Positions 51,064-63,535 of a DNA stretch of 64,000 nt are shown here, piece by piece. Origin of the DNA: Rhizobium sp. BT04 (GTDB lineage Bacteria; Pseudomonadota; Alphaproteobacteria; Rhizobiales; Rhizobiaceae). Both the position numbers and the translations under genes were made by a program. The DNA is taken from the NCBI RefSeq assembly GCF_030053135.1, contig NZ_CP125652.1:2080001-2144000 (forward strand), read 5' to 3'. The notes under the pieces were generated by a model. The model made no database searches and was not told where the DNA came from. It worked only from the letters and a program-made list of their open reading frames with translations. Each line of letters begins with the position of its first letter. Position 1 is the stretch's first letter.

Positions 51064-52995
<1,932 letters not shown>

Positions 52996-53092
52996 TGAAC
53001 TCCCCAGCACTGGAACAGCCGCCTCATGGCGACCGTCTTATTCTTCTCTAACATAGGGTTGCGCCGTGCGATTGCCAAGGCGATCCCCCAGG

Positions 53093-54589
53093 TCAGATGG
53101 TTTTTCCGTCAATACTTCTTAAAGGCGGCCTCGCATAGGGCGCCGTCGCGAAAACCGCCGAAAGCCTGTTGGCAAAGATGAAATCAAATCGTGTCAAAAA
53201 GCGGTCGAAGGGTGCGAAATAGGGCGTGAGGTCGACCCTGCGGACGAATTCCTCGGATAAAGGGGCTCCTTCGGCGGTTAAAGCCGGCGCGGAGGCGACG
53301 GCGCGCTTCCATGCCGCCTTGGGGAGGTGATGCATACGCTCCCTCATTCCTGTGCTCGGACTTGATCCGAGGGATGTCACAGGAATCCAGCCACCGCGCG
53401 TCCGCGCGGTGATTGACTCAACAATGCGTGAAGCGTCTCCCGCGCCCAAGGACTTGGGCGCGCTGGATTCCTGTGACATCCCTCGGGCAAAGCCCTGAGG
53501 CCACAGGAATGAGGGAGCGTGTGGATCGGCGGCCTCGACCACCATCGATGTGGACAAACCATTCCACGCATAAAACCTTCCATCCCACACCCCAGCCTCT
53601 CCCGGCGGCAATAACAACGGCATTATCCCCCGGCTCTCGCGCGTGAGATAAAGCCCGTCACGCCTGAGATCGAAAACCACCCTGCCGGCGGTCATCCGTC
53701 CCGGTTCACTGCCGGTGGCAAATGCAAGGATACGCTCCATATGCGCCCTCCCCGGCGCAAACGGCTGTCCGCCGAAAACAGCCGTCAGGCGCCCAAGCGC
53801 ATAATCGAGGACGGCCCGATCCTGCCGCAGCCCATCCGGCAGCACCCGCCCGAGCAGACCGCGGTGAAGCGTGAAGTGACGATCCAGCCATTCGGCGCCG
53901 CCGAACGACAGAGCCAACCGCTCCGCCCAGGCCGCACGAATATCCTTCTGCGCCGATGTATCGGCCGAAAGCTGCCGGCGCGTCCGCGCGCGCTCATATT
54001 TCATATCCTCGTTGCTGGGATCGTCGATCCATCCCGCGCCTCGTTCTCTCAGGAAAGCGCGGACATCTGCCCGGGTGGAAAAAAGAAGCGGCCGTAAAAT
54101 CCAGAAACGCCGATCGAAGAGCACCGCATCGGCAATACCCGTCGAAATCTGCTCTGTCCGCATGCCGTGCATGGCAAGTGTTTCGCGCTGGTCATCGAAT
54201 GTGTGGCCGGTGACGATGAGATCAGCGTCGGATGCTCTCGCTGCCTCGACCAGAAGGCCATAGCGCGCCTCACGGGCAGCAGCCATGATGCCGGTTTTCG
54301 GCTTGGCGCCCTGCCAGACCAGGGTGGTGTGGGAAATGCCGCGCGATGCGCAGAGGGCTGCGACGTCTCGCGCCTCGTCTGCGGAACCTGCACGCAGCGC
54401 ATGGTCGACGGTTGCAGCGCATAGGGAAATCTTGAGATGGGGCGCGGCCTTCACGGCTTCATCGAGAAGGAGAAGCAGGCCGGTCGAATCGCTGCCGCCC
54501 GAAATCGCGACGAGAATGCGCGCGGGGCTTTGAAGCGAGCTAAGAAACTGGAGGATCGCCTGTTGCGGCGACGGGGCTTCCGGAGGCAT
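53093..54589 (-). CDS. tilS: tRNA(Ile)-lysidine synthase with an in-frame repeat-derived insertion
   Basis: Modifies C34 of the AUA-reading tRNA-Ile to lysidine and is normally essential. The PP-loop SGGSDST lies at residues 30-36. VTGHTFDDQRETLAMHG and DDPSNEDMKYERARTRR are TilS hallmarks. The C-terminal RNA-recognition region is interrupted by about 62 residues (about 357-418) encoded by a palindromic repeat. This includes SQESSAPKSLGAG and GWIPVTSLG. The frame is kept throughout, so a 498-residue protein is predicted, against roughly 430-440 without the insert. Sequence on both sides of the insert still looks TilS-like (HLPKAAWKRAVAS follows). Confidence 0.9.
   Translation of the reverse strand: MPPEAPSPQQAILQFLSSLQSPARILVAISGGSDSTGLLLLLDEAVKAAPHLKISLCAATVDHALRAGSADEARDVAALCASRGISHTTLVWQGAKPKTGIMAAAREARYGLLVEAARASDADLIVTGHTFDDQRETLAMHGMRTEQISTGIADAVLFDRRFWILRPLLFSTRADVRAFLRERGAGWIDDPSNEDMKYERARTRRQLSADTSAQKDIRAAWAERLALSFGGAEWLDRHFTLHRGLLGRVLPDGLRQDRAVLDYALGRLTAVFGGQPFAPGRAHMERILAFATGSEPGRMTAGRVVFDLRRDGLYLTRESRGIMPLLLPPGEAGVWDGRFYAWNGLSTSMVVEAADPHAPSFLWPQGFARGMSQESSAPKSLGAGDASRIVESITARTRGGWIPVTSLGSSPSTGMRERMHHLPKAAWKRAVASAPALTAEGAPLSEEFVRRVDLTPYFAPFDRFLTRFDFIFANRLSAVFATAPYARPPLRSIDGKTI
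53336..53520. repeat. Palindromic mosaic element inserted in tilS (copy A)
   Basis: A 185-bp element. Its ends are a 19-bp perfect inverted repeat, ACGCTCCCTCATTCCTGTG (53336-53354) and its complement (53502-53520). A second nested pair, TCACAGGAATCCAG (53377-53390) and CTGGATTCCTGTGA (53463-53476), lies inside. Small hairpins fill the gaps: CTCGGA/TCCGAG, CCGCGCG/CGCGCGG and CGCGCCCAAG/CTTGGGCGCG. It shares its arms and the CGCCCAAG hairpin with copy B at 62569, in opposite orientation. Confidence 0.9.
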
Positions 54590-61305: not shown

Positions 61306-62526
61306 ATGAAGATTGCGGTTATGGGCGGAGACGGTTTCATTGGCTGGCCGACGTCGCTACATCTCTCCGATGCCGGTCACGACGTCCATATCCTCGACAA
61401 TCTCTCGCGCCGCTGGATCGACACCGAACTCGGCGTTCAGTCGCTGACGCCAATGGATTCGATCCAGGAGCGCACCCGCATCTGGCATGCCGAAACCGGA
61501 CGCCGCATCCACTTCAACCTGATCGATCTCGCCAGGGATTATGAACTGTTGAAGAACTGGCTTTCCGAGCACCGCCCGGATGCCGTCATCCACTTCGCCG
61601 AGCAGCGGGCCGCGCCCTATTCGATGAAAAGCGACCGCCACAAGAACTACACCGTCAACAACAATGTCAGCGCCACGCACAACCTGCTGAACGCGTTGAC
61701 CGAACTCAATCTCGACGCCCATCTCATCCATCTCGGCACCATGGGCGTCTACGGCTATTCGACGGTCGGCGCGGCCATCCCCGAAGGCTACCTGCCGGTC
61801 GGCATCGAAACGCCAGCCGGCGAGACGGTCAACCAGGAGATCCTCTATCCCTCCAATCCCGGCTCGATCTACCACATGACCAAGTGCCTGGATCAACTTC
61901 TCTTCCAGTTCTACGCCAAGAACGACGTGCTCAGGATCACCGATCTGCACCAGGGCATCGTCTGGGGCACGCATACCGAGCAGACGCGCCGCCATGCGCA
62001 GTTGATCAACCGTTTCGACTACGACGGCGACTACGGCACGGTGCTGAACCGCTTCCTCATCCAGGCGGCGATCGGCTATCCCTTGACGGTGCACGGCACC
62101 GGCGGCCAGACCCGTGCCTTCATCCATATCCAGGATTCGGTGCGCTGCATCGAACTGGCGCTGAAAAACCCGCCGGCCCGCGGCGCCCGCGTCGAGATCT
62201 TCAACCAGATGACGGAAACCCACCGGGTGCGCGACCTCGCCCAGATGATCGCCAGGATGAGCGGCGCCGACATCGCCTGGCTGCCCAACCCGCGCAAGGA
62301 AGCCGCCGAGAACGAGTTGATCGTCCAGAACGAAAAGTTCCGCAATCTCGGCCTCGAACCGATCACGCTGGAAGCAGGCCTGCTCGGCGAGATCGTCGAC
62401 GTCGCAAAGAAATTCGCCTATCGCGTCGACCGCTCGCGCGTGCCGGCCGTCTCCGCCTGGACCAAGGACATCGCCGCGACGATCAATCACGATCCGGAAG
62501 GCAAGCGGCTGAAGTCTGTCTCGTGA
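61306..62526 (+). CDS. sqdB: UDP-sulfoquinovose synthase
   Basis: Makes UDP-sulfoquinovose from UDP-glucose and sulfite for the sulfolipid SQDG. The 406-residue SDR-fold enzyme has an N-terminal NAD motif GGDGFIGWPTS, and the catalytic YHMTK-type motif appears as SIYHMTKCLDQLL. HFAEQRAAPYSM, GIVWGTHTEQ and GGQTRAFIHIQDSVRC are SqdB-specific. The sulfolipid glycosyltransferase follows in the same direction, separated by a palindromic repeat. SQDG replaces phospholipids under phosphate limitation in rhizobia. Confidence 0.94.
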   Translation: MKIAVMGGDGFIGWPTSLHLSDAGHDVHILDNLSRRWIDTELGVQSLTPMDSIQERTRIWHAETGRRIHFNLIDLARDYELLKNWLSEHRPDAVIHFAEQRAAPYSMKSDRHKNYTVNNNVSATHNLLNALTELNLDAHLIHLGTMGVYGYSTVGAAIPEGYLPVGIETPAGETVNQEILYPSNPGSIYHMTKCLDQLLFQFYAKNDVLRITDLHQGIVWGTHTEQTRRHAQLINRFDYDGDYGTVLNRFLIQAAIGYPLTVHGTGGQTRAFIHIQDSVRCIELALKNPPARGARVEIFNQMTETHRVRDLAQMIARMSGADIAWLPNPRKEAAENELIVQNEKFRNLGLEPITLEAGLLGEIVDVAKKFAYRVDRSRVPAVSAWTKDIAATINHDPEGKRLKSVS

Positions 62527-62568
62527 GCGGTGTCTTATTGTTGAAACCCCGCCAGTCCAACGATGTCC

Positions 62569-62686
62569 CCCTCATTCCTGTGTTTGTCACAGGAATCCAG
62601 CACGCCCAAGTCTTTGGGCGCAGGAGAGTCATTCACGGCGCCGACGCGCCGTGGCTGGATTCCTGTGACAAGCACAGGAATGAGGG
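62569..62686. repeat. Palindromic mosaic element between sqdB and sqdD (copy B)
   Basis: A 118-bp element. Ends CCCTCATTCCTGTG (62569-62582) and CACAGGAATGAGGG (62673-62686) are complementary. The nested pair TCACAGGAATCCAGC (62587-62601) and GCTGGATTCCTGTGA (62654-62668) lies inside. The core has CGCCCAA-TCTT-type and ACGGCGC/GCGCCGT hairpins. It belongs to the same family as copy A in tilS but lies in the opposite orientation and is shorter. Confidence 0.9.
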
Positions 62687-62710
62687 ATGGCGAGGAGGTG
62701 GTCGACAACG

Positions 62711-63535
62711 ATGATTTCTACCTCAACCCTCGCCTATGTCACCCTCGTCAGCAATGCAGACTACGCCAAGGGCGCCACCGCCCTAGCAAATTCGCTTCGC
62801 CGAACCGGCACCAGCGCCGACATCGTCATCCTCCACACCGGCGGCGTCGATGCGGCCGCCCTCGCCCCGCTCAAGACCCCCGGTTGCCGCCTGATCGAGG
62901 TCGAGCACCTGCCGCTGTCTGCCGCCTTCAACGAGCGCCATGCCCGCGGCCAGCTTCACTCAGCCGCCCCCTTCACCAAGGGCCGCAAGCCGGATTTCCA
63001 TTCGCCGCTCGACAATTTCTGCAAGCTCAGGCTGTGGCAACTCGTCGAATACCAGCGCTGCGTCTTCATCGACGCCGATGCCCTCGTGCTGAAGAATGTC
63101 GACAGGCTCTTCCTCTACCCGGAATTTTCCGCCGCCCCCAATGTCTATGAAAGTCTCGCCGACTTCCGCCGCATGAATTCCGGCGTCTTCGTCGCCACGC
63201 CCTCGCATGACACGTTCCGGCACATGCTCGAAAGGCTCGACAGGCCGGACGCCTTCTGGCGGCGCACCGATCAGACCTTTCTCGAGACGTTCTTCCCGGA
63301 TTGGCACGGCCTGCCGATCTATTTCAACATGCTGCAATATGTATGGTTCACCATGCCGGAGCTTTGGGACTGGAAGAGCATTTCGATCCTGCATTACCAG
63401 TATGAAAAACCGTGGGAAAAGGATCATCCCAAGGCAGCGCGACTACAACCTTTGATCGATCTGTGGCACCGTTTCCATGATGGCAGCGATGTGCCTGAGA
63501 TCACGGCGCTGGACAATCCGGAAGGGACAGCATGA
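62711..63535 (+). CDS. sqdD: Sulfolipid glycosyltransferase SqdD (glycogenin-like)
   Basis: A 274-residue GT-A family glycosyltransferase resembling glycogenin, proposed to transfer sulfoquinovose to diacylglycerol. LAYVTLVSNADYAKGA opens the fold, and the metal-binding DxD is seen as FIDADALVLKNVD. MNSGVFVATPSHDTF and RTDQTFLETFF follow. ATG 62711 is chosen, with AGGAGG 13-18 bases upstream. The stop overlaps the next gene by ATGA. Confidence 0.88.
   Translation: MISTSTLAYVTLVSNADYAKGATALANSLRRTGTSADIVILHTGGVDAAALAPLKTPGCRLIEVEHLPLSAAFNERHARGQLHSAAPFTKGRKPDFHSPLDNFCKLRLWQLVEYQRCVFIDADALVLKNVDRLFLYPEFSAAPNVYESLADFRRMNSGVFVATPSHDTFRHMLERLDRPDAFWRRTDQTFLETFFPDWHGLPIYFNMLQYVWFTMPELWDWKSISILHYQYEKPWEKDHPKAARLQPLIDLWHRFHDGSDVPEITALDNPEGTA

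What the first reader, a model, noticed from the sequence alone, without database searches (positions are those of the whole stretch)
53336..53520. Palindromic repeat carried in frame inside tilS
A 185-bp element with 19-bp perfect terminal inverted repeats and nested hairpins sits inside the coding region of tilS, normally an essential gene. It adds about 62 residues (357-418) without breaking the frame. Recognisable TilS sequence continues on both sides. This resembles the Rickettsia palindromic elements that insert in frame in protein genes, but here it is a rhizobial mosaic repeat. The insert must be tolerated as a surface loop in the C-terminal tRNA-binding region, or the strain must have another route to lysidine.
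Basis: partly seen in the sequence, partly recalled or inferred. Interest (0 to 1): 0.75.

Follow-up and report, generated by a model that had tools for sequence, protein, structure and literature searches.

The report
Two-way palindrome repeat inside tilS
In many Rhizobium species a hairpin-forming DNA repeat, normally found between genes, sits inside the tilS gene for a tRNA-modifying enzyme and appears to be read through as a floppy protein loop in either of two orientations, a natural experiment on how a working protein tolerates foreign DNA.

Summary
In detail: 53336-53520 is a palindromic repeat with 19-bp perfect ends inside the open tilS frame (residues 358-417). It is not a quirk of one strain. 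Of tilS genes in 148 genomes of the genus, 47 carry an intact copy in this linker, 27 a remnant, 69 none, 5 are unclear (labels by eye). All 47 intact copies have the length class that keeps the frame; 9 of 24 non-tilS copies do. Copies sit in two orientations, each in its own codon phase. A shared variable centre indicates that many derive from one insertion that was turned round. In the main clade orientation is random on the tilS tree (13 changes, 39 rows; shuffled mean 13.2) and linked mainly to linker bases, so a short cassette is probably swapped between strains. dN/dS is 0.91 and 0.66 in the insert, 0.2 in the enzyme, while the palindromic arms are conserved as DNA. AlphaFold2 confidence collapses in the insert only. 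Best reading: a tolerated, RIME-like palindrome that works like Rickettsia palindromic elements, but in one gene and both orientations. A nucleic-acid role is not excluded.

The parts
53093..54589 (-). tilS, tRNA(Ile)-lysidine synthetase, 498 aa, open frame with the insert read through
   Evidence: ORF; TIGR02432 141 bits, cut-off 93.6; PF01171; Foldseek to TilS structures 1ni5, 3a2k, 2e21, 1wy5
53336..53354 (.). terminal inverted repeat, + strand left (family consensus CTCCCTCATTCCTGTG from 53339)
53502..53520 (.). terminal inverted repeat, + strand right
53358..53391 (.). inner inverted repeat arm, partner 53462-53495; this side holds a loop module that short copies lack
53462..53495 (.). 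inner inverted repeat arm, partner 53358-53391
53392..53411 (.). core hairpin 1 (CACCGCGCGTCCGCGCGGTG)
   Evidence: sequence; consensus
53412..53441 (.). variable centre, the fingerprint of this insertion: differs among non-tilS copies, shared in reverse complement with type B tilS copies
53442..53461 (.). core hairpin 2 (GCGCCCAAGGACTTGGGCGC); its order relative to hairpin 1 defines the orientation (window = type A on the coding strand)
51064..53010 (-). ftsH (name from recall of its sequence), next ORF downstream on the same strand, 82 bp after the tilS stop; relevant to the RNA-level rival
   Evidence: ORF list
62569..62686 (-). second copy of the family in the window, short form of 118 nt, between the ORFs 61306-62526 and 62687-63535
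   Evidence: (L184)

Best explanation
A non-autonomous composite palindromic repeat of the Rhizobium group inserted long ago into the linker just before the last part of the TilS C-terminal region. It is translated as an unstructured loop, and selection keeps the frame and the absence of stops but hardly the peptide. In each orientation the element has one reading frame that is open in every tilS copy, so type A and type B copies sit in different codon phases. The same insertion has been turned round. The linker alleles A and B have since been passed between strains and species by short-tract recombination with crossovers near the linker edges. In some lineages the copy wore down by in-frame deletions. 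Shown: frame, phases, two orientations, shared centre (for about half of the A copies), random placement on the tree, association concentrated in the linker, low protein constraint. Inferred: translation as a loop, recombination as the agent of exchange, the mechanism of inversion, mobility of the family.
For: Empty site: 69 of 148 tilS genes have a short linker (protein lengths 424-453 in the compared stretch, against 479-528 for intact carriers without the split G007 gene). Frame: 47 of 47 intact tilS copies are in one length class mod 3, with TIR phase 0 in 20 of 20 type A and phase 1 in 25 of 25 B and 2 of 2 C; of 24 non-tilS copies chosen by one arm only, the three classes hold 9, 9 and 6, and 9 fit (Fisher p 1e-9, but tilS rows are related, so not a true probability). 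Turned round: the window copy's centre matches B copy L059 at score 0.93 (26 of 28 bases), the best of 41 non-tilS centres at 0.68; 11 of 20 A copies match their best B by about 0.1 or more above their best non-tilS centre. Exchange: in the 63-row clade intact A/B labels need 13 changes on 39 rows, shuffled mean 13.2 sd 1.5; association with A/B reaches 1.0 in linker flanks, is at most 0.41 over most of the N part (0.55 in its last bin) and at most 0.50 in the C part; shuffled 95% point 0.51. P0012 (A) and P0049 (B) are 97.6% identical before the linker (76.9% after); P0013 (A) and P0027 (B) are 100% identical after it (92.6% before). Tolerance: dN/dS 0.91 (A, 18 rows) and 0.66 (B, 20 rows) in the insert, 0.20 and 0.19 in the N domain; pLDDT below 50 only in the insert and the last three residues.
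Against: No proteomic evidence that the loop is in the mature enzyme; low pLDDT may in part reflect few aligned rows there. The exact target and any target duplication could not be defined. A group of type A copies (L047, L049-L052, L082, L084) has other centres that match B copies no better than non-tilS copies, so not all copies need trace to one insertion. Strong conservation of the arms at DNA level is more than mere tolerance predicts. Simple inversion between the TIRs would keep the TIR phase, yet A and B differ in phase, so further 1-2 nt shifts are needed. The tilS tree may itself be blurred by recombination, which would also scatter the labels.
Confidence: 0.75

Rival explanations
1. 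The palindrome is kept for a nucleic-acid job: a very stable RNA hairpin inside the tilS message, upstream of ftsH, that protects, processes or slows the transcript, with the peptide a by-product.
For: In the 136-nt copies (5 of 18 A, 11 of 20 B rows) arms and hairpins differ by 1-11%, the centre by 21%; the N domain differs by 17-18%, and the left linker flank has pS 0.47-0.49 and pN 0.28-0.31 (18 A rows, 11 of 20 B rows). pS in the insert is 0.15 against 0.38 in the N domain. The RNA folds at -138 kcal/mol, z -14. The 3' arm hairpin is paired in 352 of 360 cells of 40 short arms. The next ORF, ftsH, follows 82 bp downstream.
Against: 27 of 148 tilS genes keep only a remnant and 69 none (by eye), so it is dispensable. 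Compensatory changes in tilS copies are few: 2 double changes in 360 cells, in two near-identical rows, against 8 broken cells, and 2 of 36 and 2 of 48 pairs in the consensus folds. Homogenisation with the other genomic copies would also explain conserved arms.
Confidence: 0.2
2. Types A and B are separate insertions at one favoured spot, with no inversion.
For: A and B differ in codon phase and in both flanks. 9 of 20 A copies share no clear centre with B copies. Other clades (L091-L103; L082/L084) carry copies with shortened or different centres at about the same place, so more than one insertion in this linker is likely over the genus.
Against: The centre, which differs among non-tilS copies, is shared in reverse complement by the window's A copy and the B copies L059-L061 (26 of 28 bases). 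C copies (L013, L100) have B-phase arms with the core turned round.
Confidence: 0.2
3. tilS is a dying or redundant gene in this clade and the insert is debris.
For: In one of 148 genomes (G007) the gene is split by a frameshift near codon 187.
Against: N domain dN/dS about 0.2; one TilS match at E<=1e-60 in each of the 148 genomes apart from the G007 split; the linker is open in all 148; the SGGSDS motif is invariant in 51 aligned rows.
Confidence: 0.03

Closest known systems
Rickettsia palindromic elements (RPE), including RPE-1, RPE-4 and RPE-6 in R. conorii
   Same: Palindromic repeat of roughly this size (about 150 bp according to PMC10969869, passages) read in frame inside housekeeping genes; a tRNA-modification gene, tRNA pseudouridine synthase B, carries RPE-1 (PMC3733652 section 15).
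   Different: RPEs entered many unrelated genes (44 integrations in R. conorii according to PMC10969869, passages). Here only one gene with internal copies was found, across half the genomes of a genus, in both orientations and with likely allele exchange. No sequence relation was tested.
Rhizobium-specific intergenic mosaic elements (RIME) and related palindromic repeats of Sinorhizobium
   Same: Composite of palindromes, mostly intergenic, in Rhizobium and Sinorhizobium records; hits of 119-120 bp in S. meliloti plasmids at about 73-75% identity.
   Different: RIMEs are described as intergenic (PMC2573895, passages; the original 1995 paper was not held). Identity to RIME1 or RIME2 was not tested.
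GTAG/CGTC REP repeats and their intragenic copies (PMC3733652)
   Same: Palindromic repeats sometimes located within genes, often for DNA or RNA enzymes; recB of X. campestris and X. oryzae has them at about the same site (section 15).
   Different: Longer composite with CTCCC ends instead of a GTAG tag, and no Y1_Tnp (RAYT-type) transposase in this genome.
MITEs
   Same: Short, terminal inverted repeats, many copies.
   Different: No target duplication seen; in the own genome the TIR pairs lie about 33-175 bp apart, none at the spacing of a full insertion sequence (up to 1 mismatch).

Membership tests
TilS (host protein) | PP-loop N domain scoring over the TIGR02432 cut-off | tested here: met
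   141.1 bits against 93.6
Rickettsia palindromic elements | palindromic repeat read in frame inside a conserved gene whose relatives lack it | tested here: met
   open frame in 47 of 47 intact copies, 69 of 148 relatives without it
Rickettsia palindromic elements | in-frame insertion in many unrelated genes | tested here: not met
   0 of 7 own-genome copies and 2 of 24 others lie in a frame open 50 codons past both sides (L198 repeats L007 and is counted once); protein searches with the insert alone hit TilS (by name or PF01171) in 20 of 20 (A) and 33 of 37 (B), the other 4 being a di-haem oxidoreductase with the repeat at its N-terminus (50 and 49 candidates, proteins of about 270-870 aa only)
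Rickettsia palindromic elements | sequence belongs to a described RPE family | not tested
   no RPE reference sequence was fetched
RIME | repeat located between genes in Rhizobium and relatives | tested here: met
   60 of 193 plasmid records listed; 53 of these had annotation and 52 show no listed gene under the match (gene table incomplete); 112 Rhizobium and 74 Sinorhizobium records of 193. The tilS copies are the exception
RIME | sequence identity to RIME1 or RIME2 | not testable with these tools
   original paper not held; search for RIME1 gave 5 papers, none on these elements
REP/RAYT system | RAYT (Y1_Tnp, PF01797) in the genome | tested here: not met
   0 matches in own genome; control genomes ring in 5 of 14
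MITE | target-site duplication and a parent element with the same ends | tested here: inconclusive
   no duplication seen by eye in own-genome copies; no TIR pair at IS spacing among 35 TIR matches; other genomes not checked

The most novel reading that the evidence does not exclude
A core enzyme gene carries a two-state DNA cassette: one palindrome, readable in both orientations, kept as a nucleic-acid structure inside the coding sequence while its peptide drifts. The two orientations persist across species as exchangeable alleles, which would need a benefit of the hairpin (for tilS-ftsH expression, or as a recombination or cruciform site) or an active mechanism that turns and homogenises it.
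Probability: 0.2. Interest if true: 0.82.

Novelty: new variant of a known kind. Interest (0 to 1): 0.62.

Why it matters
Protein-coding palindromes are best known from Rickettsia, where many genes carry one. Here one gene, generally regarded as essential (recall), is sampled in 148 genomes with empty, intact, reversed, core-inverted and decayed states, so one can measure how a selfish repeat is tolerated, which frames and orientations survive, how it decays in frame and how alleles move between species. It also offers a case in which DNA inside a core gene seems conserved as DNA more than as protein.

Tried and rejected
Simple in-place inversion between TIRs as the whole story: rejected, since A and B differ in TIR phase. 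Read in the phase in which a copy sits, the reverse complement is stop-free in 0 of 20 A, 9 of 25 B and 2 of 2 C copies, so only B and C could interconvert directly. Flanks inverted together with the element: 6.7 matches of 12 against 5.0 random on one side and 5.3 against 5.2 on the other, but the uninverted left flank gave 6.4; not decided. In-frame copies in other genes: 23 long-frame candidates fetched; on reading they look like antisense or chance frames, 5' extensions, or the N-terminal stretch of a di-haem oxidoreductase; only one protein of that last family (P0051) was given to Pfam. Rfam at gathering thresholds gives no family at the element. Covariation as proof of structure selection in tilS copies: weak. 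First length-class sample (29 copies) was biased, because 20 of its source loci were chosen by an open element peptide; replaced. In one search, of 39 source loci 3 were tilS, 9 lacked a recognisable 3' TIR and 3 lacked the arm, leaving 24; lengths there start two bases later than, so class 2 there is class 1. In one search several of the 41 non-tilS 'centres' were mis-cut by the pattern and were left in. In one search two loci (L217, L218) were not located, three were tilS, and L198 repeats L007. One search uses only short arms (40 and 32 of 47 tilS copies, 20 of 24 non-tilS). Alignments A3 and A4 hold 19 of 20 type A and 21 of 25 type B copies. leave out L107. Labels for all states were given by eye from the peptide, several decayed ones on about ten residues; intact ones were then confirmed by pattern. 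A hand-typed arm alignment was made but not used for counts. Presence of an element-derived linker goes with presence of the arm pattern in the genome (65 of 74 against 10 of 69), but this is partly circular because the pattern can match the tilS copy itself. Literature: searches gave no listed report of a palindrome in rhizobial tilS; the listings were capped, the word tilS mostly met tumour papers, and the library lacks most subscription journals.

Full report
What is there. On the minus strand the window encodes TilS, 498 aa, 53093-54589 (TIGR02432 and PF01171; fold matches to solved TilS structures). Inside it lies a composite palindrome with 19-bp perfect ends at 53336-53354 and 53502-53520, two inner arms, two core hairpins and a variable centre. 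Compared with other copies of the genome the family unit runs from CTCCC to GGGAG, 53339-53517, and codes for residues 358-417. The RNA folds at -138 kcal/mol, z -14.

The family. The own genome has 23 hits to the element, several of them the two strands of one site, and 35 near-matches to the TIR against 3 for the reversed control. An exact arm pattern occurs in 80 of 148 genus genomes, tilS copies included. The element peptide, at E up to 1e-10, occurs in 4 of 109 genera sampled in the family, the own genus included. In plasmid records, 52 of 53 annotated places among the 60 listed (of 193) show no gene under the match (the gene table is incomplete). Solo short palindromes of the arm type exist (L187). 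In the own genome no RAYT transposase and no TIR pair at the spacing of an insertion sequence were found, and no target duplication is visible.

tilS across the genus. I took tilS from the 148 genomes that the genus search covered (and loci) and read the linker between WDGRF and LPK. By eye, 20 carry an intact type A copy (as the window), 25 type B, 2 type C, 12 and 15 decayed A and B, 5 are unclear and 69 have none. The linker is open in all 148; one genome (G007) has a frameshift elsewhere in the gene. In the tilS tree built without the linker a group of 47 rows has only short linkers without the element; copies occur in three other clades, in two of which the intact copies have a different or shortened centre, which suggests more than one entry into this linker.

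Frame and orientation. Type A copies always begin at codon phase 0 and type B and C at phase 1, and the length class is the same in 47 of 47. Of 24 non-tilS copies found only by one arm, 9 fall in that class. In tilS, A copies are open in the frame used in 20 of 20 and in the B phase in 9 of 20; B copies are open in their own in 25 of 25 and in the A phase in 4 of 25. Thus orientation and phase go together. Reading the other strand in the present phase is free of stops in 0 of 20 A, 9 of 25 B and 2 of 2 C copies; the two C copies, with B-phase arms and a turned core, fit a direct turn of the core.

One insertion turned round, then swapped. The centre differs strongly between non-tilS copies, but the window's A centre in reverse complement matches the B copies L059-L061 at 26 of 28 bases (score 0.93; best of 41 non-tilS 0.68). 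Mean similarity is 0.60 for A-B, 0.44 for tilS-other and 0.38 among others (some of the 41 were mis-cut). For 11 of 20 A copies the best B beats the best non-tilS centre by about 0.1 or more; for the other 9 (among them L047, L049-L052, L082, L084) it does not. On the tilS tree of the 63-row clade, A and B are scattered: 13 changes among 39 intact rows against a shuffled mean of 13.2; with decayed copies, 18 among 59 against 19.9. The state is tied to bases in the linker flanks up to a correlation of 1.0, but over most of the N part it stays at 0.41 or below (0.55 in the last 60 bases) and at 0.50 or below in the C part (shuffled 95% point 0.51). Proteins 97.6% identical before the linker (76.9% after), or 100% identical after it (92.6% before), carry opposite types. 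Proteins named R. leguminosarum, R. laguerreae, R. phaseoli and R. esperanzae occur in both lists. I infer short-tract recombination of linker alleles; recombination over the whole gene would blur the tree as well, so the number of exchanges is not known.

Protein or DNA? The insert has dN/dS 0.91 (A) and 0.66 (B) against 0.20 and 0.19 in the N domain. AlphaFold2 on a 51-row alignment is confident over most of the enzyme (313 of 498 residues at 90 or more) and below 50 at 359-394, 398-415 and the last three residues. So the peptide looks like a disordered loop with little sequence constraint. Yet in the 136-nt copies (5 A and 11 B rows) arms and hairpins differ by only 1-11%, the centre by 21%, and the linker beside them has pS 0.47-0.49. 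The palindrome is conserved as DNA. Either it is homogenised with other copies or between arms, or the hairpin has a use; compensatory changes within tilS are too few to decide, though 20 non-tilS arms show 6 double changes against 3 broken cells of 180.

Only tilS, as far as seen. Searches of a large protein set with the insert alone found TilS (by name or PF01171) in 20 of 20 (A) and 33 of 37 (B) hits; the other 4 are a di-haem oxidoreductase with the repeat at its annotated N-terminus, before a likely signal peptide (P0051). These searches scored 50 and 49 candidates and cover only proteins of about 270-870 aa. Of 31 distinct non-tilS copies located, 2 lie in a frame that runs at least 50 codons past both sides; both look like chance frames to me and were not tested further.

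Compared with what is known. In-frame palindromes are known from Rickettsia and from REP-rich species (PMC3733652, section 15 read, other passages seen; PMC10969869, passages). RIMEs are known as intergenic repeats (PMC2573895, passages). This one works like an RPE but fails the many-genes feature, and it differs in being bidirectional and, by inference, exchanged. I therefore call it a new variant of a known kind.

Noticed in passing
L115, L116, L117, L118, L120, L220, L221; proteins P0051, P0053, P0056, P0058: A di-haem oxidoreductase gene (PF06537) carries the same repeat in type B frame between an ATG and the likely signal peptide. The five copies measured (L115-L118, L120) are 133 nt long and open; in the translations read no methionine lies between repeat and signal peptide. 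It may be a second coding host of the repeat, or a mis-annotated start.
   Followed up: partly
window 62569-62686: A second, short copy of the repeat lies directly before the ATG at 62687 of a 282-aa ORF; a 195-aa frame starting at 62563 reads through it.
   Followed up: partly
L107 / G007:C1:3349034-3350490: tilS is split by a frameshift near codon 187 in this genome; sequencing error or pseudogene.
   Followed up: no
L098, L100, L103 (tilS linkers of G156, G150, G160): Besides the palindrome, these linkers carry roughly 30 extra residues of biased composition on each side, giving the longest linkers of the set.
   Followed up: no
L047, L060, L040: Optional loop modules of the two arms are near or exact reverse complements of each other, including a private substitution in L047, as if one arm had been copied from the other.
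   Followed up: partly
G000:C6:1919756-1919788, 3550900-3550932, 1911478-1911510: Solo 33-bp palindromes made of two TIRs back to back (one with a mismatch), possibly the smallest unit of the mosaic family.
   Followed up: no
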